Of a DNA stretch of 64,000 nt, positions 1-29,151 are shown piece by piece. Within the stretch, counting starts at the first letter, position 1. Each line of letters starts with the position of its first letter. The position numbers and the translations under genes are program-made. This DNA is from Cinnamomum chago (Eukaryota > Streptophyta > Magnoliopsida > Laurales > Lauraceae): positions 22,644,501 through 22,708,500 of the forward strand of contig CP142457.1 in the NCBI GenBank assembly GCA_038049695.1, written 5' to 3'. The notes below the pieces were generated by a model that did not search any database, was not told where the DNA came from, and worked only from the letters and a program-made list of their open reading frames with translations.

Positions 1-113
1 ACCCAGAATCCCTTCAAATGGATTTGGAGCCGTAAGGAAAGATAGAGACACCCGAAACCCCATTTAGAGTAAAACGCAATCCCGGATTTTTCCAAACGGA
101 GTCTTTGGACCAA
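1..113 (+). repeat. Partial monomer C at the left edge
   Basis: This is the 3' third of a C monomer, cut by the window start. It matches the end of the C monomer at 5774-5886, including the GGATTTTTCC variant just before the next A monomer. It shows that the array continues to the left. Confidence 0.93.
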
Positions 114-5886: not shown

Positions 5887-6857
5887 GAGTCGCATGAAAC
5901 ACAGTGTTGAGTCAACAACGTTCTAGAGCCGCACAGATTATGTTTTCGTTCAAAAGTACAGTACGACCCTCGCACGAAGTTCCGGTTCTCGCCCTCGCAA
6001 ACACTGAACTCCCCGAAAGTGATTTCCACACCCAAGACTCGCCCGAAACCCGTAGTAAACCGAAGTGTAGCTCGGAACATCCTAAAAATCGCATCTCATC
6101 CCAAAATCCCTTCATATGGATTTAGAGGCGTACGACAAGATAGGGACATCCGAAACCCCTTTTAGTTTAAAACTTGATCCCGGATATTTCTAGAGGTTGA
6201 CTTTGTACACAGAGTCGCAACAAACAAGGTGTGGAGTCAACAATTTCCTAGTGCCGCATAGATTCTGCTTTACTACATAAGTATCGTACGTCCCGCGCGA
6301 AGTTCGGGTTTTCTCCTTTACAACCAGAGAACTCCCCGAAAGTGTTTACCATACCCAAGGTTCGCCCGAAACCCGTTTTAAACCGAGAAGTAGCTCGAAA
6401 TATCCTAAAATGTGCATCTCAACCCAGAATACCTTCAAATGGATTTCGAGGCGTGAGACAAGAGAAGGACACCCGAAACCCCTTCTAGAGTAAAACGTGA
6501 TCCTGGAATTCTCTAGAGGGAGTCTTTGGACCAAGAGTCGCATTAAAACACAGTGTAGAGTCAACCATATGCTCGAGCCGCATAGTTTGTGTTTTCGTAC
6601 TAAAGGACCGTACGACCAGCACGAAGTTCGGGTTTCCGCCTTTACAAACACTGAACTCCCCGAATGTGTCTTCCCTACCCAAGATTCGCCCGAAACCCGT
6701 TTTAAACCGAAAAGTAGCTCGAAATATCTTAAAGAGCGCTCTCAACCCAGAATCCCTTCAAATGGATTTGGAGCCGTAAGGAAAGATAGAGACACCCGAA
6801 ACCCCATTTAGAGTAAAACGCAATCCCGGAGTATTCCAAACGGAGTCTTTGGACCAA
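5887..6857 (+). repeat. HOR unit 7 (971 bp), recombinant of the unit-1 type
   Basis: From A through most of C this copies unit 1 (114-1085). Its last part carries the 1-bp deletion after GCGC at 6739 and the GGAGTATTCC end typical of the delta units that precede every 3887 bp super-unit. It therefore looks like a crossover between a unit-1 type and a delta type inside monomer C, and it abuts the left edge of the regular super-array. Confidence 0.85.
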
Positions 6858-9800
6858 GAGTCGCATGAAACACAGTGTTGAGTCAACAACTTTCTAGAGC
6901 CGCACAGATTATGTTTTCGTTCAAAAGTACCGTACGACCCTCGCACGAAGTTCCGGTTCTCGCCCTGGCAAACACTGAACTCCCCGAAAGTGATTTCCAC
7001 ACCCAAGACTCGCCCGAAACCCGTAGTAAGCCGAAGTGTAGCTCGGAACATCCTAAAAATCGCATCTCATCCCAAAATCCCTTCATATGGATTTAGAGGC
7101 GTACGACAAGACAGGGACATCCGAAACCCCTTTTAGTTTAAAACTTGATCCCGGATATTTCTAGAGGTTGACTTTGTACACAGAGTCGCAACAAACAAGG
7201 TGTGGAGTCAACAATTTCCTAGTGCCGCATAGATTCTGCTTTACTACATAAGTATCGTACGTCCCGCGCGAAGTTCGGGTTTTCTCCTTTACAACCAGAG
7301 AACTCCCCGAAAGTGTTTACCATACCCAAGGTTCGCCCGAAACCCGTTTTAAACCGAGAAGTAGCTCGAAATATCCTAAAATGTGCATCTCAACCCAGAA
7401 TACCTTCAAATGGATTTCGAGGCGTGAGACAAGAGAAGGACACCCGAAACCCCTTCTAGAGTAAAACGTCATCCTGGAATTCTCTAGAGGGAGTCTTTGG
7501 ACCAAGAGTCGCATTAAAACACAGTGTAGAGTCAACCTTATGCTCGAGCCGCATAGATTGTGTTTTCGTACTAAAGGACCGTACGACCCGCACGAAGTTC
7601 GGGTTTCCGCCTTTACAAACACTGAACTCCCCGAATGTGTCTTCCCTACCCAAGATTCGCCCGAAACCCGTTTTAAACCGAAAAGTAGCTCGAAATATCT
7701 TAAAGAGCGCATCTCAACCCAGAATCCCTTCAAATGGATTTGGAGCCGTAAGGAAAGATAGAGACACCCGAAACCCCATTTAGAGTAAAACGCAATCCCG
7801 GAGTATTCCAAACGGAGTCTTTGGACCAAGAGTCGCATGAAACATAGTGTTGGGTCAACAACTTTCTAGAACCGCACAGATGATGTTTTCGTTCAAAAGT
7901 ACCGTACGACCCTCGCACGAAGTTCCGGTTCTCGCCCTGGCAAACACTGAACTCCCCGAAAGTGATTTCCACACCCAGGACTCGCCCGAAACCCGTAGTA
8001 AGCCGAAGTGTAGCTCGGAACATCCTAAAAATCGCATCTCATCCCAAAATCCCTTCATATGGATTTAGAGGCGTACGACAAGACAGGGACATCCGAAACC
8101 CCTTTTAGTTTAAAACTTGATCCCGGATATTTCTAGAGGTTGACTTTGTACACAGAGTCGCAACAAACAAGGTGTGGAGTCAACAATTTCCTAGTGCCGC
8201 ATAGATTCTGCTTTACAACATAAGTATCGTACGTCCCGCGCGAAGTTCGGGTTTTCTCCTTTACAACCAGAGAACTCCCCGAAAGTGTTTACCATACCCA
8301 AGGTTCGCCCGAAACCCGTTTTAAACCGAGAAGTAGCTCGAAATATCCTAAAATGTGCATCTCAACCCAGAATACCTTCAAATGGATTTCGAGGCGTGAG
8401 ACAAGAGAAGGACACCCGAAACCCCTTCTAGAGTAAAACGTGATCCTGGAATTCTCTAGAGGGACTCTTTGGACCAAGAGTCGCATTAAAACACAGTGTA
8501 GAGTCAACCATATGCTCGAGCCGCATAGATTGTGTTTTCGTACTAAAGGACCGTACGACCCGCACGAAGTTCGGGTTTCCGCCTTTACAAACACTGAACT
8601 CCCCGAATGTGTCTTCCCTACCCAAGATTCGCCCGAAACCCGTTTTAAACCGAAAAGTAGCTCGAAATATCTTAAAGAGCGCATCTCAACCCAGAATCCC
8701 TTCAAATGGATTTGGAGCCGTAAGGAAAGATAGAGACACCCGAAACCCCATTTAGAGTAAAACGCAATCCCGGATTATTCCAAACGGAGTCTTTGGACCA
8801 AGAGTCGCATGAAACACAGTGTTGAGTCAACAACTTTCTAGAGCCGCACAGATTATGTTTTCGTTAAAAAGTACCGTACGACCCTCGCACGAAGTTCCGG
8901 TTCTCGCCCTGGCAAACACTGAACTCCCCGAAAGTGATTTCCACACCCAAGACTCGCCCGAAACCCGTGGTAAACCGAAGTGTAGCTCGGATCATCTTAA
9001 AAATCGCATCTCATCGCAAAATCCCTTCATATGGATTTAGAGGCGTACGACATGACAGGGACACCCGAAACCCCTTTTAGTTTAAAACTTTATCCCGGAT
9101 ATTTCTAGAGGTTGCCTTTGTACACAGAGTCGCAAGAAACACGGTGTGGAGTCAACAATTTCCTAGAGCCGCAAAGATTCTGCTTTACAACAAAAGTATC
9201 GTACGTCCCGCGCGAAGTTCGGGTTTTCTCCTTTACAACCAGAGAACTCCCCGAAAGTGTTTACCATACCCAAGGTTCGCCCGAAACCCGTTTTAAACCG
9301 AGAAGTAGCTCGAAATATCCTAAAAGGTGCATCTCAACCCAGAATACCTTCAAATGGATTTCGAGGCGTGAGAGAAGAGAAGGACACCCGAAACCCCTTC
9401 TAGAGTAAAACGTGATCCTGGAATTCTCTAGAGGGAGTCTTTGGACCAAGAGTTGCATTAAAACACAGTGTAGAGTCCACCATATGTTCGAGCCGCATAG
9501 ATTGTGTTTTCGTACTAAAGGACCGTACGACCCGCACGAAGTTCGGGTTTCCGCCTTTACAAACACTGAACTCCCCGAATGTGTCTTCCTTACCCAAGAT
9601 TCGCCCGAAACCCGTTTTAAACCGAAAAATAGCTCGAAATATCTTAAAGAGCGCATCTCAACCCAGAATCCCTTCAAATGGATTTGGAGCCGTAAGTAAA
9701 GATAGAGACACCCGAAACCCCATTTAGAGTAAAACGTAATCCCGGATTTTTCCAAAGGGAGTCTTTGGACCAAGAGTCGCATGAAACACAGTGTTGAGTC

Positions 9801-10744
9801 AACAACTTTCTAGAGCCGAACAGATTATGTTTTCGTTAAAAAGTACCGTACGACCCTCGCACGAAGATCCGGTTCTCGCCCTGGCAAACACTGAACTCTC
9901 CGAAAGTGATTTCCACACCCAAGACTCGCCCGAAACCCGTAGTAAACCGAAGTGTAGCTCGGTACATCCTAAAAATCGCATCTCATCCCAAAATCCCTTC
10001 ATATGGATTTAGAGGCGTACGACAAGACAGGGACACCCGAAACCCCTTTTAGTTTAAAACTTGATCCCGGATATTTCTAGAGGTTGACTTTGTACACAGA
10101 GTCGAAAGAAACACGGTGTGGAGTCAACAATTTCCTAGTGCCGCAAAGATTCTGCTTTACAACAAAAGTATCGTACGTCCCGCGCGAAGTTCGAGTTTTC
10201 TCCTTTACAACCAGATAACTCCCCGAAAGTGTTTACCATACCCAAGGTTCGCCCAAAACCCGTTTTAAACCGAGAAGTAGCTCGAAATATCCTAAAATGT
10301 GCATCTCAACCCAGAATACCTTCAAATGGATTTCGAGGTGTGAGACAAGAGAAGGACACCCGAAACCCCTTCTAGAGTAAAACGTCATCCTGGAATTCTC
10401 TAGAGGGAGTCTTTGGACCAAGAGTCGCATTAAAACACAGTGTAGAGTCAACCTTATGCTCGAGCCGCATAGATTGTGTTTTCGTACTAAAGGACCGTAC
10501 GACCCGCACGAAGTTCGGGTTTCCGCCTTTACAAACACTGAACTCCCCGAATGTGTCTTCCCTACCCAAGATTCGCCCGAAACCCGTTTTAAACCGAAAA
10601 GTAGCTCGAAATATCTTAAAGAGCGCTCTCAACCCAGAATCCCTTCAAATGGATTTGGAGCCGTAAGGAAAGATAGAGACACCCGAAACCCCATTTAGAG
10701 TAAAACGCAATCCCGGAGTATTCCAAACGGAGTCTTTGGACCAA
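6858..10744 (+). repeat. Second-level HOR, 12 monomers, 3887 bp, copy 1
   Basis: Four distinguishable units in order: alpha (6858), beta (7830), gamma (8802), delta (9774). Alpha has CAACAAACAAGG in B, the GTCATCC/CCTTATG C haplotype and a GGAGTATTCC end. Beta has AACATAGTGTTGGGTC, GAACCGCAC and GGGACTC. Gamma has CCCGTGGTAAACCG, GTTGCCTTTG, GAGTTGCATT and CGTAAGTAAAG. Delta has GCCGAACAG, GAAGATCCGG, GTCGAAAG, CAGATAACTCC and the 1-bp deletion at 10626, which accounts for 3887 instead of 3888. Changes private to this copy include CACAGATGATG near 7880, ACCCAGGACTCG near 7977, AACTCTCCG near 9897 and GAGGTGTGAG near 10337. Confidence 0.93.
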
Positions 10745-13700
10745 GAGTCGCATGAAACACAGTGTTGAGTCAACAACTTTCTAGAGCCGCACAGATTATG
10801 TTTTCGTTCAAAAGTACCGTACGACCCTCGCACGAAGTTCCGGTTCTCGCCCTGGCAAACACTGAACTCCCCGAAAGTGATTTCCACACCCAAGACTCGC
10901 CCGAAACCCGTAGTAAGCCGAAGTGTAGCTCGGAACATCCTAAAAATCGCATCTCATCCCAAAATCCCTTCATATGGATTTAGAGGCGTACGACAAGACA
11001 GGGACATCCGAAACCCCTTTTAGTTTAAAACTTGATCCCGGATATTTCTAGAGGTTGACTTTGTACACAGAGTCGCAACAAACAAGGTGTGGAGTCAACA
11101 ATTTCCTAGTGCCGCATAGATTCTGCTTTACTACATAAGTATCGTACGTCCCGCGCGAAGTTCGGGTTTTCTCCTTTACAACCAGAGAACTCCCCGAAAG
11201 TGTTTACCATACCCAAGGTTCGCCCGAAACCCGTTTTAAACCGAGAAGTAGCTCGAAATATCCTAAAATGTGCATCTCAACCCAGAATACCTTCAAATGG
11301 ATTTCGAGGCGTGAGACAAGAGAAGGACACCCGAAACCCCTTCTAGAGTAAAACGTCATCCTGGAATTCTCTAGAGGGAGTCTTTGGACCAAGAGTCGCA
11401 TTAAAACACAGTGTAGAGTCAACCTTATGCTCGAGCCGCATAGATTGTGTTTTCGTACTAAAGGACCGTACGACCCGCACGAAGTTCGGGTTTCCGCCTT
11501 TACAAACACTGAACTCCCCGAATGTGTCTTCCCTACCCAAGATTCGCCCGAAACCCGTTTTAAACCGAAAAGTAGCTCGAAATATCTTAAAGAGCGCATC
11601 TCAACCCAGAATCCCTTCAAATGGATTTGGAGCCGTAAGGAAAGATAGAGACACCCGAAACCCCATTTAGAGTAAAACGCAATCCCGGAGTATTCCAAAC
11701 GGAGTCTTTGGACCAAGAGTCGCATGAAACATAGTGTTGGGTCAACAACTTTCTAGAACCGCACAGATTATGTTTTCGTTCAAAAGTACCGTACGACCCT
11801 CGCACGAAGTTCCGGTTCTCGCCCTGGCAAACACTGAACTCCCCGAAAGTGATTTCCACACCCAAGACTCGCCCGAAACCCGTAGTAAGCCGAAGTGTAG
11901 CTCGGAACATCGTAAAAATCGCATCTCATCCCAAAATCCCTTCATATGGATTTAGAGGCGTACGACAAGACAGGGACATCCGAAACCCCTTTTAGTTTAA
12001 AACTTGATCCCGGATATTTCTAGAGGTTGACTTTGTACACAGAGTCGCAACAAACAAGGTGTGGAGTCAACAATTTCCTAGTGCCGCATAGATTCTGCTT
12101 TACTACATAAGTATCGTACGTCCCGCGCGAAGTTCGGGTTTTCTCCTTTACAACCAGAGAACTCCCCGAAAGTGTTTACCATACCCAAGGTTCGCCCGAA
12201 ACCCGTTTTAAACCGAGAAGTAGCTCGAAATATCCTAAAATGTGCATCTCAACCCAGAATACCTTCAAATGGATTTCGAGGCGTGAGACAAGAGAAGGAC
12301 ACCCGAAACCCCTTCTAGAGTAAAACGTGATCCTGGAATTCTCTAGAGGGACTCTTTGGACCAAGAGTCGCATTAAAACACAGTGTAGAGTCAACCATAT
12401 GCTCGAGCCGCATAGATTGTGTTTTCGTACTAAAGGACCGTACGACCCGCACGAAGTTCGGGTTTCCGCCTTTACAAACACTGAACTCCCCGAATGTGTC
12501 TTCCCTACCCAAGATTCGCCCGAAACCCGTTTTAAACCGAAAAGTAGCTCGAAATATCTTAAAGAGCGCATCTCAACCCAGAATCCCTTCAAATGGATTT
12601 GGAGCCGTAAGGAAAGATAGAGACACCCGAAACCCCATTTAGAGTAAAACGCAATCCCGGATTATTCCAAACGGAGTCTTTGGACCAAGAGTCGCATGAA
12701 ACACAGTGTTGAGTCAACAACTTTCTAGAGCCGCACAGATTATGTTTTCGTTAAAAAGTACCGTACGACCCTCGCACGAAGTTCCGGTTCTCGCCCTGGC
12801 AAACACTGAACTCCCCGAAAGTGATTTCCACACCCAAGACTCGCCCGAAACCCGTGGTAAACCGAAGTGTAGCTCGGATCATCTTAAAAATCGCATCTCA
12901 TCGCAAAATCCCTTCATATGGATTTAGAGGCGTACGACATGACAGGGACACCCGAAACCCCTTTTAGTTTAAAACTTTATCCCGGATATTTCTAGAGGTT
13001 GCCTTTGTACACAGAGTCGCAAGAAACACGGTGTGGAGTCAACAATTTCCTAGAGCCGCAAAGATTCTGCTTTACAACAAAAGTATCGTACGTCCCGCGC
13101 GAAGTTCGGGTTTTCTCCTTTACAACCAGAGAACTCCCCGAAAGTGTTTACCATACCCAAGGTTCGCCCGAAACCCGTTTTAAACCGAGAAGTAGCTCGA
13201 AATATCCTAAAAGGTGCATCTCAACCCAGAATACCTTCAAATGGATTTCGAGGCGTGAGAGAAGAGAAGGACACCCGAAACCCCTTCTAGAGTAAAACGT
13301 GATCCTGGAATTCTCTAGAGGGAGTCTTTGGACCAAGAGTTGCATTAAAACACAGTGTAGAGTCCACCATATGTTCGAGCCGCATAGATTGTGTTTTCGT
13401 ACTAAAGGACCGTACGACCCGCACGAAGTTCGGGTTTCCGCCTTTACAAACACTGAACTCCCCGAATGTGTCTTCCTTACCCAAGATTCGCCCGAAACCC
13501 GTTTTAAACCGAAAAATAGCTCGAAATATCTTAAAGAGCGCATCTCAACCCAGAATCCCTTCAAATGGATTTGGAGCCGTAAGTAAAGATAGAGACACCC
13601 GAAACCCCATTTAGAGTAAAACGTAATCCCGGATTTTTCCAAAGGGAGTCTTTGGACCAAGAGTCGCATGAAACACAGTGTTGAGTCAACAACTTTCTAG

Positions 13701-14631
13701 AGCCGAACAGATTATGTTTTCGTTAAAAAGTACCGTACGACCCTCGCACGAAGATCCGGTTCTCGCCCTGGCAAACACTGAACTCCCCGAAAGTGATTTC
13801 CACACCCAAGACTCGCCCGAAACCCGTAGTAAACCGAAGTGTAGCTCGGTACATCCTAAAAATCGCATCTCATCCCAAAATCCCTTCATATGGATTTAGA
13901 GGCGTACGACAAGACAGGGACACCCGAAACCCCTTTTAGTTTAAAACTTGATCCCGGATATTTCTAGAGGTTGACTTTGTACACAGAGTCGAAAGAAACA
14001 CGGTGTGGAGTCAACAATTTCCTAGTGCCGCAAAGATTCTGCTTTACAACAAAAGTATCGTACGTCCCGCGCGAAGTTCGAGTTTTCTCCTTTACAACCA
14101 GATAACTCCCCGAAAGTGTTTACCATACCCAAGGTTCGCCCAAAACCCGTTTTAAACCGAGAAGTAGCTCGAAATATCCTAAAATGTGCATCTCAACCCA
14201 GAATACCTTCAAATGGATTTCGAGGCGTGAGACAAGAGAAGGACACCCGAAACCCCTTCTAGAGTAAAACGTCATCCTGGAATTCTCTAGAGGGAGTCTT
14301 TGGACCAAGAGTCGCATTAAAACACAGTGTAGAGTCAACCTTATGCTCGAGCCGCATAGATTGTGTTTTCGTACTAAAGGACCGTACGACCCGCACGAAG
14401 TTCGGGTTTCCGCCTTTACAAACACTGAACTCCCCGAATGTGTCTTCCCTACCCAAGATTCGCCCGAAACCCGTTTTAAACCGAAAAGTAGCTCGAAATA
14501 TCTTAAAGAGCGCTCTCAACCCAGAATCCCTTCAAATGGATTTGGAGCCGTAAGGAAAGATAGAGACACCCGAAACCCCATTTAGAGTAAAACGCAATCC
14601 CGGAGTATTCCAAACGGAGTCTTTGGACCAA
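10745..14631 (+). repeat. Second-level HOR, 3887 bp, copy 2
   Basis: Same alpha-beta-gamma-delta order, starting at 10745, 11717, 12689 and 13661. Its beta unit keeps AACATAGTGTTGGGTC and GAACCGCAC as in copy 1, which sets copies 1 and 2 apart from copies 3 to 6. It has a private ACATCGTAAAAATCG change near 11911 and the recurring 1-bp deletion at 14513. Confidence 0.93.
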
Positions 14632-17600
14632 GAGTCGCATGAAACACAGTGTTGAGTCAACAACTTTCTAGAGCCGCACAGATTATGTTTTCGTTCAAAA
14701 GTACCGTACGACCCTCGCACGAAGTTCCGGTTCTCGCCCTGGCAAACACTGAACTCCCCGAAAGTGATTTCCACACCCAAGACTCGCCCGAAACCCGTAG
14801 TAAGCCGAAGTGTAGCTCGGAACATCCTAAAAATCGCATCTCATCCCAAAATCCCTTCATATGGATTTAGAGGCGTACGACAAGACAGGGACATCCGAAA
14901 CCCCTTTTAGTTTAAAACTTGATCCCGGATATTTCTAGAGGTTGACTTTGTACACAGAGTCGCAACAAACAAGGTGTGGAGTCAACAATTTCCTAGTGCC
15001 GCATAGATTCTGCTTTACTACATAAGTATCGTACGTCCCGCGCGAAGTTCGGGTTTTCTCCTTTACAACCAGAGAACTCCCCGAAAGTGTTTACCATACC
15101 CAAGGTTCGCCCGAAACCCGTTTTAAACCGAGAAGTAGCTCGAAATATCCTAAAATGTGCATCTCAACCCAGAATACCTTCAAATGGATTTCGAGGCGTG
15201 AGACAAGAGAAGGACACCCGAAACCCCTTCTAGAGTAAAACGTCATCCTGGAATTCTCTAGAGGGAGTCTTTGGACCAAGAGTCGCATTAAAACACAGTG
15301 TAGAGTCAACCTTATGCTCGAGCCGCATAGATTGTGTTTTCGTACTAAAGGACCGTACGACCCGCACGAAGTTCGGGTTTCCGCCTTTACAAACACTGAA
15401 CTCCCCGAATGTGTCTTCCCTACCCAAGATTCGCCCGAAACCCGTTTTAAACCGAAAAGTAGCTCGAAATATCTTAAAGAGCGCATCTCAACCCAGAATC
15501 CCTTCAAATGGATTTGGAGCCGTAAGGAAAGATAGAGACACCCGAAACCCCATTTAGAGTAAAACGCAATCCCGGAGTATTCCAAACGGAGTCTTTGGAC
15601 CAAGAGTCGCATCAAACACAGTGTTGAGTCAACAACTTTCTAGAGCCGCACAGATTATGTTTTCGTTCAAAAGTACCGTACGACCCTCGCACGAAGTTCC
15701 GGTTCTCGCCCTGGCAAACACTGAACTCCCCGAAAGTGATTTCCACACCCAAGACTCGCCCGAAACCCGTAGTAAGCCGAAGTGTAGCTCGGAACATCCT
15801 AAAAATCGCATCTCATCCCAAAATCCCTTCATATGGATTTAGAGGCGTACGACAAGACAGGGACATCCGAAACCCCTTTTAGTTTAAAACTTGATCCCGG
15901 ATATTTCTAGAGGTTGACTTTGTACACAGAGTCGCAACAAACAAGGTGTGGAGTCAACAATTTCCTAGTGCCGCATAGATTCTGCTTTACTACATAAGTA
16001 TCGTACGTCCCGCGCGAAGTTCGGGTTTTCTCCTTTACAACCAGAGAACTCCCCGAAAGTGTTTACCATACCCAAGGTTCGCCCGAAACCCGTTTTAAAC
16101 CGAGAAGTAGCTCGAAATATCCTAAAATGTGCATCTCAACCCAGAATACCTTCAAATGGATTTCGAGGCGTGAGACAAGAGAAGGACACCCGAAACCCCT
16201 TCTAGAGTAAAACGTGATCCTGGAATTCTCTAGAGGGACTCTTTGGACCAAGAGTCGCATTAAAACACAGTGTAGAGTCAACCATATGCTCGAGCCGCAT
16301 AGATTGTGTTTTCGTACTAAAGGACCGTACGACCCGCACGAAGTTCGGGTTTCCGCCTTTACAAACACTGAACTCCCCGAATGTGTCTTCCCTACCCAAG
16401 ATTCGCCCGAAACCCGTTTTAAACCGAAAAGTAGCTCGAAATATCTTAAAGAGCGCATCTCAACCCAGAATCCCTTCAAATGGATTTGGAGCCGTAAGGA
16501 AAGATAGAGACACCCGAAACCCCATTTAGAGTAAAACGCAATCCCGGATTATTCCAAACGGAGTCTTTGGACCAAGAGTCGCATGAAACACAGTGTTGAG
16601 TCAACAACTTTCTAGAGCCGCACAGATTATGTTTTCGTTAAAAAGTACCGTACGACCCTCGCACGAAGTTCCGGTTCTCGCCCTGGCAAACACTGAACTC
16701 CCCGAAAGTGATTTCCACACCCAAGACTCGCCCGAAACCCGTGGTAAACCGAAGTGTAGCTCGGATCATCTTAAAAATCGCATCTCATCGCAAAATCCCT
16801 TCATATGGATTTAGAGGCGTACGACATGACAGGGACACCCGAAACCCCTTTTAGTTTAAAACTTTATCCCGGATATTTCTAGAGGTTGCCTTTGTACACA
16901 GAGTCGCAAGAAACACGGTGTGGAGTCAACAATTTCCTAGAGCCGCAAAGATTCTGCTTTACAACAAAAGTATCGTACGTCCCGCGCGAAGTTCGGGTTT
17001 TCTCCTTTACAACCAGAGAACTCCCCGAAAGTGTTTACCATACCCAAGGTTCGCCCGAAACCCGTTTTAAACCGAGAAGTAGCTCGAAATATCCTAAAAG
17101 GTGCATCTCAACCCAGAATACCTTCAAATGGATTTCGAGGCGTGAGAGAAGAGAAGGACACCCGAAACCCCTTCTAGAGTAAAACGTGATCCTGGAATTC
17201 TCTAGAGGGAGTCTTTGGACCAAGAGTTGCATTAAAACACAGTGTAGAGTCCACCATATGTTCGAGCCGCATAGATTGTGTTTTCGTACTAAAGGACCGT
17301 ACGACCCGCACGAAGTTCGGGTTTCCGCCTTTACAAACACTGAACTCCCCGAATGTGTCTTCCTTACCCAAGATTCGCCCGAAACCCGTTTTAAACCGAA
17401 AAATAGCTCGAAATATCTTAAAGAGCGCATCTCAACCCAGAATCCCTTCAAATGGATTTGGAGCCGTAAGTAAAGATAGAGACACCCGAAACCCCATTTA
17501 GAGTAAAACGTAATCCCGGATTTTTCCAAAGGGAGTCTTTGGACCAAGAGTCGCATGAAACACAGTGTTGAGTCAACAACTTTCTAGAGCCGAACAGATT

Positions 17601-18518
17601 ATGTTTTCGTTAAAAAGTACCGTACGACCCTCGCACGAAGATCCGGTTCTCGCCCTGGCAAACACTGAACTCCCCGAAAGTGATTTCCACACCCAAGACT
17701 CGCCCGAAACCCGTAGTAAACCGAAGTGTAGCTCGGTACATCCTAAAAATCGCATCTCATCCCAAAATCCCTTCATATGGATTTAGAGGCGTACGACAAG
17801 ACAGGGACACCCGAAACCCCTTTTAGTTTAAAACTTGATCCCGGATATTTCTAGAGGTTGACTTTGTACACAGAGTCGAAAGAAACACGGTGTGGAGTCA
17901 ACAATTTCCTAGTGCCGCAAAGATTCTGCTTTACAACAAAAGTATCGTACGTCCCGCGCGAAGTTCGAGTTTTCTCCTTTACAACCAGATAACTCCCCGA
18001 AAGTGTTTACCATACCCAAGGTTCGCCCAAAACCCGTTTTAAACCGAGAAGTAGCTAGAAATATCCTAAAATGTGCATCTCAACCCAGAATACCTTCAAA
18101 TGGATTTCGAGGCGTGAGACAAGAGAAGGACACCCGAAACCCCTTCTAGAGTAAAACGTCATCCTGGAATTCTCTAGAGGGAGTCTTTGGACCAAGAGTC
18201 GCATTAAAACACAGTGTAGAGTCAACCTTATGCTCGAGCCGCATAGATTGTGTTTTCGTACTAAAGGACCGTACGACCCGCACGAAGTTCGGGTTTCCGC
18301 CTTTACAAACACTGAACTCCCCGAATGTGTCTTCCCTACCCAAGATTCGCCCGAAACCCGTTTTAAACCGAAAAGTAGCTCGAAATATCTTAAAGAGCGC
18401 TCTCAACCCAGAATCCCTTCAAATGGATTTGGAGCCGTAAGGAAAGATAGAGACACCCGAAACCCCATTTAGAGTAAAACGCAATCCCGGAGTATTCCAA
18501 ACGGAGTCTTTGGACCAA
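14632..18518 (+). repeat. Second-level HOR, 3887 bp, copy 3
   Basis: Units start at 14632, 15604, 16576 and 17548. The beta unit has GCATCAAACAC (G to C at 15613) and GTTGAGTC, replacing the AACATAGTGTTGGG seen in copies 1 and 2, and is otherwise beta-like (GGGACTC in C). There is a private GTAGCTAGAAAT change near 18057 in the delta B monomer, and the 1-bp deletion at 18400. Confidence 0.93.
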
Positions 18519-21500
18519 GAGTCGCATGAAACACAGTGTTGAGTCAACAACTTTCTAGAGCCGCACAGATTATGTTTTCGTTCAAAAGTACCGTACGACC
18601 CTCGCACGAAGTTCCGGTTCTCGCCCTGGCAAACACTGAACTCCCCGAAAGTGATTTCCACACCCAAGACTCGCCCGAAACCCGTAGTAAGCCGAAGTGT
18701 AGCTCGGAACATCCTAAAAATCGCATCTCATCCCAAAATCCCTTCATATGGATTTAGAGGCGTACGACAAGACAGGGACATCCGAAACCCCTTTTAGTTT
18801 AAAACTTGATCCCGGATATTTCTAGAGGTTGACTTTGTACACAGAGTCGCAACAAACAAGGTGTGGAGTCAACAATTTCCTAGTGCCGCATAGATTCTGC
18901 TTTACTACATAAGTATCGTACGTCCCGCGCGAAGTTCGGGTTTTCTCCTTTACAACCAGAGAACTCCCCGAAAGTGTTTACCATACCCAAGGTTCGCCCG
19001 AAACCCGTTTTAAACCGAGAAGTAGCTCGAAATATCCTAAAATGTGCATCTCAACCCAGAATACCTTCAAATGGATTTCGAGGCGTGAGACAAGAGAAGG
19101 ACACCCGAAACCCCTTCTAGAGTAAAACGTCATCCTGGAATTCTCTAGAGGGAGTCTTTGGACCAAGAGTCGCATTAAAACACAGTGTAGAGTCAACCTT
19201 ATGCTCGAGCCGCATAGATTGTGTTTTCGTACTAAAGGACCGTACGACCCGCACGAAGTTCGGGTTTCCGCCTTTACAAACACTGAACTCCCCGAATGTG
19301 TCTTCCCTACCCAAGATTCGCCCGAAACCCGTTTTAAACCGAAAAGTAGCTCGAAATATCTTAAAGAGCGCATCTCAACCCAGAATCCCTTCAAATGGAT
19401 TTGGAGCCGTAAGGAAAGATAGAGACACCCGAAACCCCATTTAGAGTAAAACGCAATCCCGGAGTATTCCAAACGGAGTCTTTGGACCAAGAGTCGCATC
19501 AAACACAGTGTTGAGTCAACAACTTTCTAGAGCCGCACAGATTATGTTTTCGTTCAAAAGTACCGTACGACCCTCGCACGAAGTTCCGGTTCTCGCCCTG
19601 GCAAACACTGAACTCCCCGAAAGTGATTTCCACACCCAAGACTCGCCCGAAACCCGTAGTAAGCCGAAGTGTAGCTCGGAACATCCTAAAAATCGCATCT
19701 CATCCCAAAATCCCTTCATATGGATTTAGAGGCGTACGACAAGACAGGGACATCCGAAACCCCTTTTAGTTTAAAACTTGATCCCGGATATTTCTAGAGG
19801 TTGACTTTGTACACAGAGTCGCAACAAACAAGGTGTGGAGTCAACAATTTCCTAGTGCCGCATAGATTCTGCTTTACTACATAAGTATCGTTCGTCCCGC
19901 GCGAAGTTCGGGTTTTCTCCTTTACAACCAGAGAACTCCCCGAAAGTGTTTACCATACCCAAGGTTCGCCCGAAACCCGTTTTAAACCGAGAAGTAGCTC
20001 GAAATATCCTAAAATGTGCATCTCAACCCAGAATACCTTCAAATGGATTTCGAGGCGTGAGACAAGAGAAGGACACCCGAAACCCCTTCTAGAGTAAAAC
20101 GTGATCCTGGAATTCTCTAGAGGGACTCTTTGGACCAAGAGTCGCATTAAAACACAGTGTAGAGTCAACCATATGCTCGAGCCGCATAGATTGTGTTTTC
20201 GTACTAAAGGACCGTACGACCCGCACGAAGTTCGGGTTTCCGCCTTTACAAACACTGAACTCCCCGAATGTGTCTTCCCTACCCAAGATTCGCCCGAAAC
20301 CCGTTTTAAACCGAAAAGTAGCTCGAAATATCTTAAAGAGCGCATCTCAACCCAGAATCCCTTCAAATGGATTTGGAGCCGTAAGGAAAGATAGAGACAC
20401 CCGAAACCCCATTTAGAGTAAAACGCAATCCCGGATTATTCCAAACGGAGTCTTTGGACCAAGAGTCGCATGAAACACAGTGTTGAGTCAACAACTTTCT
20501 AGAGCCGCACAGATTATGTTTTCGTTAAAAAGTACCGTACGACCCTCGCACGAAGTTCCGGTTCTCGCCCTGGCAAACACTGAACTCCCCGAAAGTGATT
20601 TCCACACCCAAGACTCGCCCGAAACCCGTGGTAAACCGAAGTGTAGCTCGGATCATCTTAAAAATCGCATCTCATCGCAAAATCCCTTCATATGGATTTA
20701 GAGGCGTACGACATGACAGGGACACCCGAAACCCCTTTTAGTTTAAAACTTTATCCCGGATATTTCTAGAGGTTGCCTTTGTACACAGAGTCGCAAGAAA
20801 CACGGTGTGGAGTCAACAATTTCCTAGAGCCGCAAAGATTCTGCTTTACAACAAAAGTATCGTACGTCCCGCGCGAAGTTCGGGTTTTCTCCTTTACAAC
20901 CAGAGAACTCCCCGAAAGTGTTTACCATACCCAAGGTTCGCCCGAAACCCGTTTTAAACCGAGAAGTAGCTCGAAATATCCTAAAAGGTGCATCTCAACC
21001 CAGAATACCTTCAAATGGATTTCGAGGCGTGAGAGAAGAGAAGGACACCCGAAACCCCTTCTAGAGTAAAACGTGATCCTGGAATTCTCTAGAGGGAGTC
21101 TTTGGACCAAGAGTTGCATTAAAACGCAGTGTAGAGTCCACCATATGTTCGAGCCGCATAGATTGTGTTTTCGTACTAAAGGACCGTACGACCCGCACGA
21201 AGTTCGGGTTTCCGCCTTTACAAACACTGAACTCCCCGAATGTGTCTTCCTTACCCAAGATTCGCCCGAAACCCGTTTTAAACCGAAAAATAGCTCGAAA
21301 TATCTTAAAGAGCGCATCTCAACCCAGAATCCCTTCAAATGGATTTGGAGCCGTAAGTAAAGATAGAGACACCCGAAACCCCATTTAGAGTAAAACGTAA
21401 TCCCGGATTTTTCCAAAGGGAGTCTTTGGACCAAGAGTCGCATGAAACACTGTGTTGAGTCAACAACTTTCTAGAGCCGAACAGATTATGTTTTCGTTAA

Positions 21501-22405
21501 AAAGTACCGTACGACCCTCGCACGAAGATCCGGTTCTCGCCCTGGCAAACACTGAACTCCCCGAAAGTGATTTCCACACCCAAGACTCGCCCGAAACCCG
21601 TAGTAAACCGAAGTGTAGCTCGGTACATCCTAAAAATCGCATCTCATCCCAAAATCCCTTCATATGGATTTAGAGGCGTACGACAAGACAGGGACACCCG
21701 AAACCCCTTTTAGTTTAAAACTTGATCCCGGATATTTCTAGAGGTTGACTTTGTACACAGAGTCGAAAGAAACACGGTGTGGAGTCAACAATTTCCTAGT
21801 GCCGCAAAGATTCTGCTTTACAACAAAAGTATCGTACGTCCCGCGCGAAGTTCGAGTTTTCTCCTTTACAACCAGATAACTCCCCGAAAGTGTTTACCAT
21901 ACCCAAGGTTCGCCCAAAACCCGTTTTAAACCGAGAAGTAGCTCGAAATATCCTAAAATGTGCATCTCAACCCAGAATACCTTCAAATGGATTTCGAGGC
22001 GTGAGACAAGAGAAGGACACCCGAAACCCCTTCTAGAGTAAAACGTCATCCTGGAATTCTCTAGAGGGAGTCTTTGGACCAAGAGTCGCATTAAAACACA
22101 GTGTAGAGTCAACCTTATGCTCGAGCCGCATAGATTGTGTTTTCGTACTAAAGGACCGTACGACCCGCACGAAGTTCGGGTTTCCGCCTTTACAAACACT
22201 GAACTCCCCGAATGTGTCTTCCCTACCCAAGATTCGCCCGAAACCCGTTTTAAACCGAAAAGTAGCTCGAAATATCTTAAAGAGCGCTCTCAACCCAGAA
22301 TCCCTTCAAATGGATTTGGAGCCGTAAGGAAAGATAGAGACACCCGAAACCCCATTTAGAGTAAAACGCAATCCCGGAGTATTCCAAACGGAGTCTTTGG
22401 ACCAA
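18519..22405 (+). repeat. Second-level HOR, 3887 bp, copy 4
   Basis: Units start at 18519, 19491, 20463 and 21435. The beta unit matches copy 3 (GCATCAAACAC, GTTGAGTC). Gamma carries AAAACGCAG at 21126, shared only with copy 5. A private ATCGTTCGTCCC change lies near 19891 and AACACTGTG near 21450. The 1-bp deletion is at 22287. Confidence 0.93.
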
Positions 22406-25400
22406 GAGTCGCATGAAACACAGTGTTGAGTCAACAACTTTCTAGAGCCGCACAGATTATGTTTTCGTTCAAAAGTACCGTACGACCCTCGCACGAAGTT
22501 CCGGTTCTCGCCCTGGCAAACACTGAACTCCCCGAAAGTGATTTCCACACCCAAGACTCGCCCGAAACCCGTAGTAAGCCGAAGTGTAGCTCGGAACATC
22601 CTAAAAATCGCATCTCATCCCAAAATCCCTTCATATGGATTTAGAGGCGTACGACAAGACAGGGACATCCGAAACCCCTTTTAGTTTAAAACTTGATCCC
22701 GGATATTTCTAGAGGTTGACTTTGTACACAGAGTCGCAACAAACAAGGTGTGGAGTCAACAATTTCCTAGTGCCGCATAGATTCTGCTTTACTACATAAG
22801 TATCGTACGTCCCGCGCGAAGTTCGGGTTTTCTCCTTTACAACCAGAGAACTCCCCGAAAGTGTTTACCATACCCAAGGTTCGCCCGAAACCCGTTTTAA
22901 ACCGAGAAGTAGCTCGAAATATCCTAAAATGTGCATCTCAACCCAGAATACCTTCAAATGGATTTCGAGGCGTGAGACAAGAGAAGGACACCCGAAACCC
23001 CTTCTAGAGTAAAACGTCATCCTGGAATTCTCTAGAGGGAGTCTTTGGACCAAGAGTCGCATTAAAACACAGTGTAGAGTCAACCTTATGCTCGAGCCGC
23101 ATAGATTGTGTTTTCGTACTAAAGGACCGTACGACCCGCACGAAGTTCGGGTTTCCGCCTTTACAAACACTGAACTCCCCGAATGTGTCTTCCCTACCCA
23201 AGATTCGCCCGAAACCCGTTTTAAACCGAAAAGTAGCTCGAAATATCTTAAAGAGCGCATCTCAACCCAGAATCCCTTCAAATGGATTTGGAGCCGTAAG
23301 GAAAGATAGAGACACCCGAAACCCCATTTAGAGTAAAACGCAATCCCGGAGTATTCCAAACGGAGTCTTTGGACCAAGAGTCGCATCAAACACAGTGTTG
23401 GGTCAACAACTTTCTAGAGCCGCACAGATTATGTTTTCGTTCAAAAGTACCGTACGACCCTCGCACGAAGTTCCGGTTCTCGCCCTGGCAAACACTGAAC
23501 TCCCCGAAAGTGATTTCCACACCCAAGACTCACCCGAAACCCGTAGTAAGCCGAAGTGTAGCTCGGAACATCCTAAAAATCGCATCTCATCCCAAAATCC
23601 CTTCATATGGATTTAGAGGCGTACGACAAGACAGGGACATCCGAAACCCCTTTTAGTTTAAAACTTCATCCCGGATATTTCTAGAGGTTGACTTTGTACA
23701 CAGAGTCGCAACAAACAAGGTGTGGAGTCAACAATTTCCTAGTGCCGCATAGATTCTGCTTTACTACATAAGTATCGTACGTCCCGCGCGAAGTTCGGGT
23801 TTTCTCCTTTACAACCAGAGAACTCCCCGAAAGTGTTTACCATACCCAAGGTTCGCCCGAAACCCGTTTTAAACCGAGAAGTAGCTCGAAATATCCTAAA
23901 ATGTGCATCTCAACCCAGAATACCTTCAAATGGATTTCGAGGCGTGAGACAAGAGAAGGACACCCGAAACCCCTTCTAGAGTAAAACGTGATCCTGGAAT
24001 TCTCTAGAGGGACTCTTTGGACCAAGAGTCGCATTAAAACACAGTGTAGAGTCAACCATATGCTCGAGCCGCATAGATTGTGTTTTCGTACTAAAGGACC
24101 GTACGACCCGCACGAAGTTCGGGTTTCCGCCTTTACAAACACTGAACTCCCCGAATGTGTCTTCCCTACCCAAGATTCGCCCGAAACCCGTTTTAAACCG
24201 AAAAGTAGCTCGAAATATCTTAAAGAGCGCATCTCAACCCAGAATCCCTTCAAATGGATTTGGAGCCGTAAGGAAAGATAGAGACACCCGAAACCCCATT
24301 TAGAGTAAAACGCAATCCCGGATTATTCCAAACGGAGTCTTTGGACCAAGAGTCGCATGAAACACAGTGTTGAGTCAACAACTTTCTAGAGCCGCACAGA
24401 TTATGTTTTCGTTAAAAAGTACCGTACGACCCTCGCACGAAGTTCCGGTTCTCGCCCTGGCAAACACTGAACTCCCCGAAAGTGATTTCCACACCCAAGA
24501 CTCGCCCGAAACCCGTGGTAAACCGAAGTGTAGCTCGGATCATCTTAAAAATCGCATCTCATCGCAAAATCCCTTCATATGGATTTAGAGGCGTACGACA
24601 TGACAGGGACACCCGAAACCCCTTTTAGTTTAAAACTTTATCCCGGATATTTCTAGAGGTTGCCTTTGTACACAGAGTCGCAAGAAACACGGTGTGGAGT
24701 CAACAATTTCCTAGAGCCGCAAAGATTCTGCTTTACAACAAAAGTATCGTACGTCCCGCGCGAAGTTCGGGTTTTCTCCTTTACAACCAGAGAACTCCCC
24801 GAAAGTGTTTACCATACCCAAGGTTCGCCCGAAACCCGTTTTAAACCGAGAAGTAGCTCGAAATATCCTAAAAGGTGCATCTCAACCCAGAATACCTTCA
24901 AATGGATTTCGAGGCGTGAGAGAAGAGAAGGACACCCGAAACCCCTTCTAGAGTAAAACGTGATCCTGGAATTCTCTAGAGGGAGTCTTTGGACCAAGAG
25001 TTGCATTAAAACGCAGTGTAGAGTCCACCATATGTTCGAGCCGCATAGATTGTGTTTTCGTACTAAAGGACCGTACGACCCGCACGAAGTTCGGGTTTCC
25101 GCCTTTACAAACACTGAACTCCCCGAATGTGTCTTCCTTACCCAAGATTCGCCCGAAACCCGTTTTAAACCGAAAAATAGCTCGAAATATCTTAAAGAGC
25201 GCATCTCAACCCAGAATCCCTTCAAATGGATTTGGAGCCGTAAGTAAAGATAGAGACACCCGAAACCCCATTTAGAGTAAAACGTAATCCCGGATTTTTC
25301 CAAAGGGAGTCTTTGGACCAAGAGTCGCATGAAACACAGTGTTGAGTCAACAACTTTCTAGAGCCGAACAGATTATGTTTTCGTTAAAAAGTACCGTACG

Positions 25401-26292
25401 ACCCTCGTACGAAGATCCGGTTCTCGCCCTGGCAAACACTGAACTCCCCGAAAGTGATTTCCACACCCAAGACTCGCCCGAAACCCGTAGTAAACCGAAG
25501 TGTAGCTCGGTACATCCTAAAAATCGCATCTCATCCCAAAATCCCTTCATATGGATTTAGAGGCGTACGACAAGACAGGGACACCCGAAACCCCTTTTAG
25601 TTTAAAACTTGATCCCGGATATTTCTAGAGGTTGACTTTGTACACAGAGTCGAAAGAAACACGGTGTGGAGTCAACAATTTCCTAGTGCCGCAAAGATTC
25701 TGCTTTACAACAAAAGTATCGTACGTCCCGCGCGAAGTTCGAGTTTTCTCCTTTACAACCAGATAACTCCCCGAAAGTGTTTACCATACCCAAGGTTCGC
25801 CCAAAACCCGTTTTAAACCGAGAAGTAGCTCGAAATATCCTAAAATGTGCATCTCAACCCAGAATACCTTCAAATGGATTTCGAGGCGTGAGACAAGAGA
25901 AGGACACCCGAAACCCCTTCTAGAGTAAAACGTCATCCTTGAATTCTCTAGAGGGAGTCTTTGGACCAAGAGTCGCATTAAAACACAGTGTAGAGTCAAC
26001 CTTATGCTCGAGCCGCATAGATTGTGTTTTCGTACTAAAGGACCGTACGACCCGCACGAAGTTCGGGTTTCCGCCTTTACAAACACTGAACTCCCCGAAT
26101 GTGTCTTCCCTACCCAAGATTCGCCCGAAACCCGTTTTAAACCGAAAAGTAGCTCGAAATATCTTAAAGAGCGCTCTCAACCCAGAATCCCTTCAAATGG
26201 ATTTGGAGCCGTAAGGAAAGATAGAGACACCCGAAACCCCATTTAGAGTAAAACGCAATCCCGGAGTATTCCAAACGGAGTCTTTGGACCAA
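22406..26292 (+). repeat. Second-level HOR, 3887 bp, copy 5
   Basis: Units start at 22406, 23378, 24350 and 25322. The beta unit combines GCATCAAACAC with GTTGGGTC, as in copy 6. Gamma carries AAAACGCAG at 25013, exactly 3887 bp from the same variant in copy 4. Private changes include GACTCACCC near 23530, AACTTCATCCC near 23666, CCCTCGTACG near 25406 and CATCCTTGAATTC near 25934. The 1-bp deletion is at 26174. Confidence 0.93.
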
Positions 26293-28385
26293 GAGTCGCA
26301 TGAAACACAGTGTTGAGTCAACAACTTTCTAGAGCCGCACAGATTATGTTTTCGTTCAAAAGTACCGTACGACCCTCGCACGAAGTTCCGGTTCTCGCCC
26401 TGGCAAACACTGAACTCCCCGAAAGTGATTTCCACACCCAAGACTCGCCCGAAACCCGTAGTAAGCCGAAGTGTAGCTCGGAACATCCTAAAAATCGCAT
26501 CTCATCCCAAAATCCCTTCATATGGATTTAGAGGCGTACGACAAGACAGGGACATCCGAAACCCCTTTTAGTTTAAAACTTGATCCCGGATATTTCTAGA
26601 GGTTGACTTTGTACACAGAGTCGCAACAAACAAGGTGTGGAGTCAACAATTTCCTAGTGCCGCATAGATTCTGCTTTACTACATAAGTATCGTACGTCCC
26701 GCGCGAAGTTCGGGTTTTCTCCTTTACAACCAGAGAACTCCCCGAAAGTGTTTACCATACCCAAGGTTCGCCCGAAACCCGTTTTAAACCGAGAAGTAGC
26801 TCGAAATATCCTAAAATGTGCATCTCAACCCAGAATACCTTCAAATGGATTTCGAGGCGTGAGACAAGAGAAGGACACCCGAAACCCCTTCTAGAGTAAA
26901 ACGTCATCCTGGAATTCTCTAGAGGGAGTCTTTGGACCAAGAGTCGCATTAAAACACAGTGTAGAGTCAACCTTATGCTCGAGCCGCATATATTGTGTTT
27001 TCGTACTAAAGGACCGTACGACCCGCACGAAGTTCGGGTTTCCGCCTTTACAAACACTGAACTCCCCGAATGTGTCTTCCCTACCCAAGATTCGCCCGAA
27101 ACCCGTTTTAAACCGAAAAGTAGCTCGAAATATCTTAAAGAGCGCATCTCAACCCAGAATCCCTTCAAATGGATTTGGAGCCGTAAGGAAAGATAGAGAC
27201 ACCCGAAACCCCATTTAGAGTAAAACGCAATCCCGGAGTATTCCAAACGGAGTCTTTGGACCAAGAGTCGCATCAAACACAGTGTTGGGTCAACAACTTT
27301 CTAGAGCCGCACAGATTATGTTTTCGTTCAAAAGTACCGTACGACCCTCGCACGAAGTTCCGGTTCTCGCCCTGGCAAACACTGAACTCCCCGAAAGTGA
27401 TTTCCACACCCAAGACTCGCCCGAAACCCGTAGTAAGCCGAAGTGTAGCTCGGAACATCCTAAAAATCGCATCTCATCCCAAAATCCCTTCATATGGATT
27501 TAGAGGCGTACGACAAGACAGGGACATCCGAAACCCCTTTTAGTTTAAAACTTGATCCCGGATATTTCTAGAGGTTGACTTTGTACACAGAGTCGCAACA
27601 AACAAGGTGTGGAGTCAACAATTTCCTAGTGCCGCATAGATTCTGCTTTACTACATAAGTATCGTACGTCCCGCGCGAAGTTCGGGTTTTCTCCTTTACA
27701 ACCAGAGAACTCCCCGAAAGTGTTTACCATACCCAAGGTTCGCCCGAAACCCGTTTTAAACCGAGAAGTAGCTCGAAATATCCTAAAATGTGCATCTCAA
27801 CCCAGAATACCTTCAAATGGATTTCGAGGCGTGAGACAAGAGAAGGACACCCGAAACCCCTTCTAGAGTAAAACGTGATCCTGGAATTCTCTAGAGGGAC
27901 TCTTTGGACCAAGAGTCGCATTAAAACACAGTGTAGAGTCAACCATATGCTCGAGCCGCATAGATTGTGTTTTCGTACTAAAGGACCGTACGACCCGCAC
28001 GAAGTTCGGGTTTCCGCCTTTACAAACACTGAACTCCCCGAATGTGTCTTCCCTACCCAAGATTCGCCCGAAACCCGTTTTAAACCGAAAAGTAGCTCGA
28101 AATATCTTAAAGAGCGCATCTCAACCCAGAATCCCTTCAAATGGATTTGGAGCCGTAAGGAAAGATAGAGACACCCGAAACCCCATTTAGAGTAAAACGC
28201 AATCCCGGATTATTCCAAACGGAGTCTTTGGACCAAGAGTCGCATGAAACACAGTGTTGAGTCAACAACTTTCTAGAGCCGCACAGATTATGTTTTCGTT
28301 AAAAAGTACCGTACGACCCTCGCACGAAGTTCCGGTTCTCGCCCTGGCAAACACTGAACTCCCCGAAAGTGATTTCCACACCCAA
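26293..28385 (+). repeat. Second-level HOR, copy 6, truncated inside its gamma unit
   Basis: Alpha (26293) and beta (27265) are complete; the third unit starts at 28237 with the TTAAAAAG variant and follows the gamma pattern only to the CACCCAA at 28385. There the sequence switches to a different unit type. A private CATATATTGTG change lies near 26990. The beta unit has GCATCAAACAC and GTTGGGTC, as in copy 5. Confidence 0.9.
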
Positions 28386-29151
28386 TACACTCGCTCGAAA
28401 CCCGTAGTAAACCGAAGTGTAGCTCGGAACATCCTAAAAATCGCATCTCATCCCAAAATCCCTTCATATGGATTTAGAGGCGTACGAAAAGACTGGGACA
28501 CCCGAAACCCCTTTTAGTTTAAAACTTGATCCCGGATATTTCTAGAGGTTGACTTTGTACACAGAGTCGCAAGAAACACGGTGTGGAGTGAACAATTTCC
28601 TAGTGCCGCAAAGATTCTGCTTTACTACAAAAGTATCGTACGTCCCGCGCGAAGTTCGGGTTTTCTCCTTTACAACCAGAGAACTCCCCGAAAGTGTTTA
28701 CCATACCCAAGGTTCGCCCGAAACCCGTTTTAAACCGAGAAGTAGCTCGAAATATCCTAAAAGGTGCATCTTAACACAGAATACCTTCAAATGGATTTCG
28801 AGGCGTGAGACAAGAGAAGGACACCCGAAACCCCCTTCTAGAGTAAAACGTGATCCTGGAATTCTCTAGAGGGAGTCTTTGGACCAAGAGTCGCATTAAA
28901 ACACAGTGTAGAGTCCACCATATGCTCGAGCCGCATAGATCGTGTTTTCGTACTAAAGGACCGTACGACCCGCACGAAGTTCGGGTTTCCGCTTTTACAA
29001 ACACTGAACTCCCCGAATGTGTCTTCCGTACCCAAGATTCGCAGAATCCCTTCAAATGGATTTGGAGCCGTAAGGAAAGATAGAGACACCCGAAACCCCA
29101 TTTAGAGTAAAACGCAATCCCGGATTATTCCAAACGGAGTCTTTGGACCAA
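28237..29151 (+). repeat. Junction HOR unit (915 bp) ending the 3887 bp super-array
   Basis: A hybrid unit. Up to 28385 it continues copy 6 of the super-array. From about 28391 it matches unit 2 (from about 1237): TCGCTCGAAACC, GTACGAAAAGACTGGG, GTGGAGTGAAC, GCATCTTAACACAG, five C at 28831-28835, and the 60-bp C deletion at 29042/29043. At the join, CCCAAGACTCG is replaced by CCCAATACACTCG, a 2-bp net gain, so the exchange was not base-perfect. Confidence 0.9.

What the first reader, a model, noticed from the sequence alone, without database searches (positions are those of the whole stretch)
6858..28385. Two-level higher-order repeat: 3 monomers make 972 bp, and 4 such units make 3887 bp
Five complete and one truncated copy of a 12-monomer super-unit follow each other with a constant period of 3887 bp (starts 6858, 10745, 14632, 18519, 22406, 26293). 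The four member units are told apart by dozens of fixed differences, while super-units differ only by a few changes. The unit of recent amplification was therefore the 12-mer, not the monomer or trimer. Nested HORs of this regularity are well known in primate alpha satellite and have been described less often elsewhere.
Basis: seen in the sequence. Interest (0 to 1): 0.75.

Follow-up and report, generated by a model that had tools for sequence, protein, structure and literature searches.

The report
Nested satellite repeats in plant chromosome
A stretch of plant DNA that looks like part of a centromere is built of repeats inside repeats: three related blocks form a unit, and four such units were copied again as one larger block, which lets one trace how such arrays grow.

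Summary
The whole window is a satellite array: 198 monomer starts (mostly 323, 324 or 325 bp apart) in abc order, a 972-bp trimer. Between 6619 and 28385, four trimers (972+972+972+971) form a 3887-bp, 12-monomer super-unit, 5.6 copies, with 19 variable positions. Two corrections: member units alpha and beta differ by only 3 fixed substitutions (the other five pairs by 20-28), and the 12-mer was the local, not the general, unit of amplification.

The window lies at 22.64-22.71 Mb of a 64-Mb chromosome (C7) of an unidentified land plant with 12 chromosomes. The array, sampled from 21.9 to 23.7 Mb, is a patchwork of HORs of other periods. Exact markers of the fourth unit (33 copies) and of a 59-bp deletion (51) occur only on C7, in three clusters; the 3887-bp alpha-beta-gamma-delta unit was seen only here. 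C4 carries the same trimer with its own HORs. Best reading: a (peri)centromeric satellite growing by repeated local tandem duplication and conversion, much like human alpha satellite. CENH3 binding was not testable. New member of a known kind; interest moderate.

The parts
1..64000 (+). satellite array: 198 monomer starts of three types, a (325 bp), b (323 bp), c (324 bp), types 78-82% alike, in abc order
6619..28385 (+). 12-monomer (four-trimer) higher-order repeat, period 3887 bp, 5.6 copies
6749..7720 (+). unit alpha of the first copy (972 bp); further alpha units start every 3887 bp, the last at 26184
7721..8692 (+). unit beta (972 bp); 3 fixed substitutions from alpha; holds 11 of the 19 sites that vary among copies, all in 7839-8231
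8693..9664 (+). unit gamma (972 bp); 24-28 fixed substitutions from the other units
9665..10635 (+). unit delta (971 bp, one base shorter); 20-28 fixed substitutions from the other units
977..3833 (+). block B-C-D: trimer whose c monomer lacks 59 bp (913 bp), then gamma-like and delta-like trimers
28128..30985 (+). second copy of block B-C-D (915, 972, 971 bp); its deletion junction lies 27,153 bp from the first
33900..34221 (+). lone extra a-type monomer (322 bp): the one break of abc order in the window
34222..64000 (+). trimer domain without a 3887-bp super-unit throughout; local periods 2916, 1943/1944, 3888 and 6801

Best explanation
This is part of a multi-level satellite array about 2 Mb long, most likely at or beside the centromere of chromosome C7 of a land plant. 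An old monomer of about 324 bp split into three types a, b, c that came to be copied as one trimer (972 bp), before the C4 and C7 arrays went separate ways or with transfer between them. Within C7, blocks of one to seven trimers were then repeatedly multiplied in place, by out-of-register exchange or break repair between near-identical copies, with short conversion tracts. The 12-mer of this window is one such local burst, beside a stretch (22.546-22.632 Mb) where gamma trimers already stand mostly one to four trimers apart. Other bursts elsewhere in the array moved older blocks apart. Shown: the anatomy, the confinement of the markers to C7, the shared trimer on C4, the patchwork of periods. 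Inferred: the exchange mechanism, the order of events, and a role at the kinetochore.
For: Two-level period, cyclic order and shuffle test. Of 20 C7 samples of 10 kb, the 13 between 21.9 and 23.71 Mb are satellite (12 fully, L015 78%); six at 20.0-21.51 and 24.5-25.01 Mb have none, the one at 24.0 Mb 8%. Homogeneity within samples: 0.962-0.978 at 21.9-22.55 Mb; 0.989-0.997 at 22.63-23.0 except 0.982 in the 12-mer itself; 0.981 at 23.2; 0.996-0.997 at 23.4-23.49; 0.976 at 23.7 (only monomers of 300-340 bp used). Best periods change from sample to sample. Delta marker: 33 exact copies genome-wide, all on C7 (7 in the window, 17 at 23.12-23.23, 9 at 23.70-23.80 Mb). 59-bp-deletion junction: 51, all on C7 (2, 19, 30), there at other spacings (5772, 4801, 2857+1885). 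Gamma marker: 109, of the 100 listed 2 on C4 and 98 on C7. In a tree of 109 monomers (at most 9 per sample) types a, b, c each form one clade across C4 and C7 (support 1.0, 1.0, 0.75). Several variants are shared by neighbouring copies, and 11 of 19 variable sites fall in 393 bp of beta, as conversion would leave. Of 6 long ORFs scanned from flank samples at 20.5, 24.0, 24.5 and 25.0 Mb, 5 match transposon domains in Pfam.
Against: No CENH3, methylation, FISH or read data. Passages of PMC12046899 report plant tandem arrays with HORs that show no CENH3 peaks. The layering is not a clean symmetric one: homogeneity falls with distance from 22.95 Mb (Spearman -0.66, p 0.007, 15 samples) but likeness to C4 does not rise with it (0.29, p 0.30), and homogeneity dips at 23.2 Mb. 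The exact delta marker is absent left of the window, so the source of delta is unknown. Samples from C1, C3 and C5 lack the abc trimer, so it is no genome-wide centromere unit. No CENP-B-box core within one mismatch in the one trimer tested (box consensus recalled), which says little for a plant.
Confidence: 0.75

Rival explanations
1. The array is non-centromeric heterochromatin (a knob-like or relic array) with the same mode of growth but no kinetochore.
For: Passages of PMC12046899 report HOR-bearing plant arrays without CENH3 peaks. The satellite motif has further places on some chromosomes: C1 at 76.3-77.1 and 83.0-83.1 Mb, C4 at several spots in 65.5-70.2 Mb, one hit on C7 at 28.73 Mb (lists capped at 100).
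Against: On C7 all 13 samples over about 1.8 Mb are satellite, and samples further out are not and hold transposon ORFs, which is what a satellite centromere looks like.
Confidence: 0.2
2. The 3887-bp regularity is an assembly artefact (repeat units multiplied or collapsed by the assembler).
For: Exact matches of up to 2257 bp between copies exist; 11 of 12 chromosome lengths are multiples of 2500 bases, which hints at binned scaffolding; no reads at hand.
Against: The copies carry 19 distinguishing sites, several shared by neighbours; gamma units spaced 3886-3889 bp recur at 22.546-22.632 Mb outside the window (13 of 29 spacings, counted from the list); the 13 array samples have 0 N. The exact copy number remains open.
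Confidence: 0.07
3. The super-unit was multiplied outside the chromosome (circle excision, rolling-circle copying, reinsertion) and not by in-place exchange.
For: 5.6 near-identical copies with a sharp right edge at 28385; deletion and delta markers occur in three clusters spread over 1.15 Mb.
Against: Differences grow with distance along the array (copy 1 against 2-5: 6, 10, 12, 13), and neighbours share variants, as stepwise tandem duplication predicts; the exact delta and deletion markers were found on C7 only.
Confidence: 0.15
4. One reading: the 12-mer was the unit of recent amplification.
For: True for 6619-28385.
Against: The exact delta marker is missing between 22.675 and 23.124 Mb, and the four samples at 22.71-23.0 Mb show best lags of 1943 and its multiples, 972 multiples or 4857 at 91-99.9% identity.
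Confidence: 0.05

Closest known systems
Human alpha-satellite chromosome-specific HORs built on suprachromosomal-family dimers (J1J2, D1D2); passages of PMC9549924
   Same: A short class period runs through longer HORs; the class period is shared by chromosomes while the HORs are chromosome-specific; homogeneous blocks lie within more divergent ones.
   Different: Plant; monomer 324 and not 171 bp; class period is a trimer, found here on two chromosomes (C4, C7) of the five sampled; many small HOR domains in the samples and no single dominant HOR; no CENP-B box found in the trimer tested.
Cascading HORs and local-nested HORs (passages of PMC11050224 and PMC10053651)
   Same: Monomer types recur within one HOR copy; a subunit is multiplied inside a larger unit.
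   Different: Here the inner period is strict (abc four times), not an irregular row of recurring types.
Plant centromere satellites with HORs: Arabidopsis CEN178, Brachypodium CentBd/CentBs, Papaver PCEN338, switchgrass (passages of PMC10053651, PMC10910784, PMC11406182, PMC4053949)
   Same: Local HORs in tandem arrays; switchgrass HORs also carry truncated monomers, like the 59-bp deletion here.
   Different: The passages on Arabidopsis report single-monomer expansion in all its centromeres; here a trimer is the base unit of most sampled C7 domains (irregular at 22.2 and 22.4 Mb).

Membership tests
Higher-order repeat array | distinct monomer types in fixed order; multimers far more alike than monomers | tested here: met
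   types 78-82% alike, trimers about 95-100%, super-units 99.7-99.9%
Two-level (cascading-type) HOR | a monomer type (members under 5% apart) occurs more than once in one HOR copy | tested here: met
   trimers within the 12-mer region differ by at most 31 of 972 and a, b, c each occur four times per copy; measured per trimer, not per monomer; definition from passages of PMC11050224
Chromosome-specific HOR | HOR markers confined to one chromosome | tested here: met
   exact delta marker 33 of 33 and deletion junction 51 of 51 on C7; gamma 98 of the 100 listed (109 in all) on C7, 2 on C4
Class period shared between chromosomes (suprachromosomal-family-like) | same monomer classes in same order on several chromosomes | tested here: met
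   abc on C4 and C7; not in samples of C1, C3, C5; one rare a-type variant has 9 of 9 hits on C4 and C7
Functional centromere satellite | CENH3-bound | not testable with these tools
   no ChIP data
Functional centromere satellite | one megabase block per chromosome amid transposon-rich flanks | tested here: inconclusive
   seen on C7 by sampling; other chromosomes only spot-sampled
Primate alpha satellite | 171-bp monomer, CENP-B box, primates | tested here: not met
   324-bp monomer, no box core within one mismatch, plant genome; sequence comparison with alpha satellite itself was not made

The most novel reading that the evidence does not exclude
A plant has independently evolved the human-type centromere architecture: a class trimer shared by at least two chromosomes, chromosome-specific HORs nested on it, and layered growth that single mutations (a 59-bp deletion, the delta unit) allow one to follow across 1.15 Mb of one array.
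Probability: 0.45. Interest if true: 0.55.

Novelty: new member of a known kind. Interest (0 to 1): 0.4.

Why it matters
A strict trimer base with second-level HORs gives built-in markers for the amplification steps, so that rates and sizes of exchange in a centromere-like plant array could be measured between individuals. Plant satellite centromeres are, as I recall, mostly described as monomer-based with short-range HORs. The finding itself is an ordinary product of known satellite turnover.

Tried and rejected
Gene content: no Rfam match at gathering score and no tRNA in the window; the 264 stop-to-stop frames of 90 aa or more, longest 182 aa, recur with the repeat and were taken as chance, without a protein search. 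Internal halves of the monomer: only c exceeded all of 100 shuffles; a and b did not (29 and 12 of 100 reached the observed score), so a dimeric origin is not claimed. CENP-B box: no core within one mismatch. IMG/VR scan for one monomer motif: 0. Literature: six sequence strings, 0 papers; repeat lengths, 0, 4 and 9 papers, none on such a satellite as far as title and start of abstract show; organelle and genome sizes, 0. A guess from memory that the plant is one of the Lauraceae was put into one search; no listed paper held that word, and the species was not identified. Symmetric layering was tested and only partly held. Methylation decay: CpG is not depleted (observed/expected 1.17) and rare variants show 28 transitions to 35 transversions, 6 of 63 being CpG transitions (the row of the lone extra monomer was dropped); not explained.
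Full report
The observation. The whole 64-kb window is one satellite array on the + strand. I found 198 monomer starts with spacings of 323 (76), 325 (65), 324 (51), 322 (2), 265 (2) and 327 (1) bp. They fall into three types, a, b and c, which are 78-82% alike and run abcabc through the window with one exception, an extra a at 33900. Three monomers make 972 bp. Ungapped self-comparison of 6858-28385 gives 99.85% identity at 3887 bp. The clean match begins after 6618 and ends at 28385, so 5.6 copies are present. The four trimers of a copy measure 972, 972, 972 and 971 bp.

Strength. Among the 22 trimers of 6749-28127, those four apart differ by 1.44 substitutions on average, those one to three apart by 20.6-26.8; none of 20,000 shuffles comes near. 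All four classes separate in an unrooted tree (gamma 1.00, delta 0.996, beta 0.946, alpha 0.917), but not equally: alpha and beta differ by 3 fixed substitutions, the other pairs by 20-28. Five super-units differ pairwise at 4-13 positions, more with greater distance (copy 1 against 2-5: 6, 10, 12, 13). Of 19 variable sites in the six copies (the last one partial), 11 lie in 393 bp of beta, where a cluster of three sites carries one state in copies 1-2 and another in copies 3-6. A short conversion tract is the simplest cause; this is inference.

Surroundings in the window. To the right, 34-64 kb consists of trimers that differ by 4.1-5.8 substitutions at any offset from 1 to 8, with local periods of 2916, 1943/1944, 3888 and 6801 bp, some at 99.8% or more over 4-8 kb. 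To the left, the block B-C-D at 977-3833 carries a 59-bp deletion in its c monomer; such a block returns at 28128-30985.

The genome. The window is C7:22644501-22708500 of an assembly of 1.061 Gb in 14 contigs: 12 chromosomes of 56-134 Mb, one contig of 707,525 bp and one of 152,753 bp. The last begins with a tRNA-His gene and a 353-aa ORF that I recognise as psbA (recognised from memory), hence a plastid; the far end of C7 is TTTAGGG repeats. It is a land plant; the species was not identified. The 707-kb contig is probably the mitochondrion (not tested).

The array on C7. Of twenty 10-kb samples from 20 to 25 Mb, the 13 from 21.9 to 23.71 Mb are satellite (12 fully, L015 78%), the one at 24.0 Mb 8%, the other six none. 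Single pattern hits extend it to 23.889 Mb. Best lags change by place: 5830 at 21.9, 5832 at 22.2 (with ab-ab-c runs), 972 at 22.4 (only 52%, with an insert), 6803 at 22.55-22.64, 3887 in the window, 1943 and multiples at 22.71 and 22.8, multiples of 972 at 22.9, 4857 at 23.0, 972 at 23.2, 973 multiples at 23.4, 5832 at 23.49 and 972 at 23.7 Mb. Local homogeneity is 0.962-0.978 in the left part, 0.989-0.997 in 22.63-23.0 and 23.4-23.49 Mb, with lower values in the 12-mer sample (0.982), at 23.2 (0.981) and at 23.7 Mb (0.976). The 12-mer is conspicuous because it sits at the edge of the homogeneous part, where divergent trimers survive.

Markers. Exact search of the whole genome found the gamma marker 109 times (100 listed: 2 on C4, 98 on C7), the delta marker 33 times and the deletion junction 51 times, both only on C7. 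Delta: 7 in the window, 17 at 23.12-23.23, 9 at 23.70-23.80 Mb. Deletion: 2, 19 and 30. In the right-hand clusters they lie at other spacings: among them 5772 and 4801 bp at 23.12-23.23, and 2857 and 1885 bp in alternation at about 23.73-23.757 Mb. Left of the window, 13 of 29 gamma spacings are 3886-3889 bp, without the exact delta marker. So the full alpha-beta-gamma-delta unit is known only from this window, while its parts were reused. About 450 kb without exact delta or deletion marker separates the first two clusters, as if a younger block had grown between them; the order in time is inferred.

Other chromosomes. The monomer motif with up to two mismatches occurs 51,673 times forward and 7,041 times reverse, against 13 for the reversed control. 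Two C4 samples carry the abc trimer with 2910-bp (99.9%) and 2916-bp (96%) HORs of nine monomers. In a tree of 109 monomers (at most 9 per sample) a, b and c are each one clade across C4 and C7 (support 1.0, 1.0, 0.75), so the trimer is older than the separate arrays, or was passed between them. L049 on C1 holds c-like monomers in a 3832-bp HOR (95%) on the other strand; samples of C3 and C5, and another of C1, hold diverged copies without such order; relatives occur on C3, C4, C5, C10 and C12 (best candidates only). One rare a-type variant was found 9 times, only on C4 and C7. I did not sample C2, C6, C8, C9 or C11, nor fetch the places on C10 and C12.

Mechanism. The most likely course is repeated tandem duplication of short blocks by out-of-register homologous exchange or break repair, with conversion. 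Shown: local blocks of different length, neighbours most alike, exact markers confined to one chromosome. Inferred: the molecular route and the order. The centromere role is likely from position and form but untested; transposon ORFs in flank samples (5 of 6 scanned) fit it.

Literature. Seen as found passages, not whole papers: PMC10053651 (local-nested HORs in human; HORs in Arabidopsis), PMC11050224 (cascading HORs), PMC9549924 (dimer classes within human HORs; new centromere within the old), PMC4053949 (HORs in 76 of 171 species; switchgrass HORs with truncated monomers), PMC10910784, PMC11406182 and PMC12046899 (plant HORs; arrays without CENH3 peaks). The kind is known; this satellite and its trimer base were not found in print in the searches.

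Noticed in passing
L049 (C1:76396001-76404000): C1 bears another HOR of 3832 bp (two parts of 1957 and 1875 bp) from c-like monomers on the - strand, while L046 (C1:76.311-76.316 Mb) is on the + strand: apparently an inversion within the array.
   Followed up: partly
C10:22.0-22.3, C12:55.47-55.52 and 59.07-59.10, C3:64.8-65.3, C4:37.17 Mb: A related satellite with spacing of about 580 bp, 75-80% like the C5 copy used as query (best candidates only).
   Followed up: no
window 1-64000: CpG is not depleted (observed/expected 1.17) and TpG/CpA are low (0.74, 0.77), with 6 of 63 rare variants being CpG transitions: unexpected for a plant repeat if methylated; it may be hypomethylated or renewed faster than it decays.
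   Followed up: partly
L015 about 1.7-3.9 kb (C7:22.40 Mb): An insert of about 2.2 kb in satellite, starting TG, ending CA and flanked by AAGAC on both sides, as a solo LTR would be; family not determined.
   Followed up: no
L014 (C7:22.20 Mb): Irregular order with ab-ab-c runs in place of strict abc.
   Followed up: no
C1-C12, bases 1-600: All 12 chromosomes read N at their first 600 bases, and 11 of 12 lengths are multiples of 2500; cause unknown.
   Followed up: no
L026 (C7:24.00 Mb): Other short tandem repeats (158- and 148-bp periods) just outside the array.
   Followed up: no
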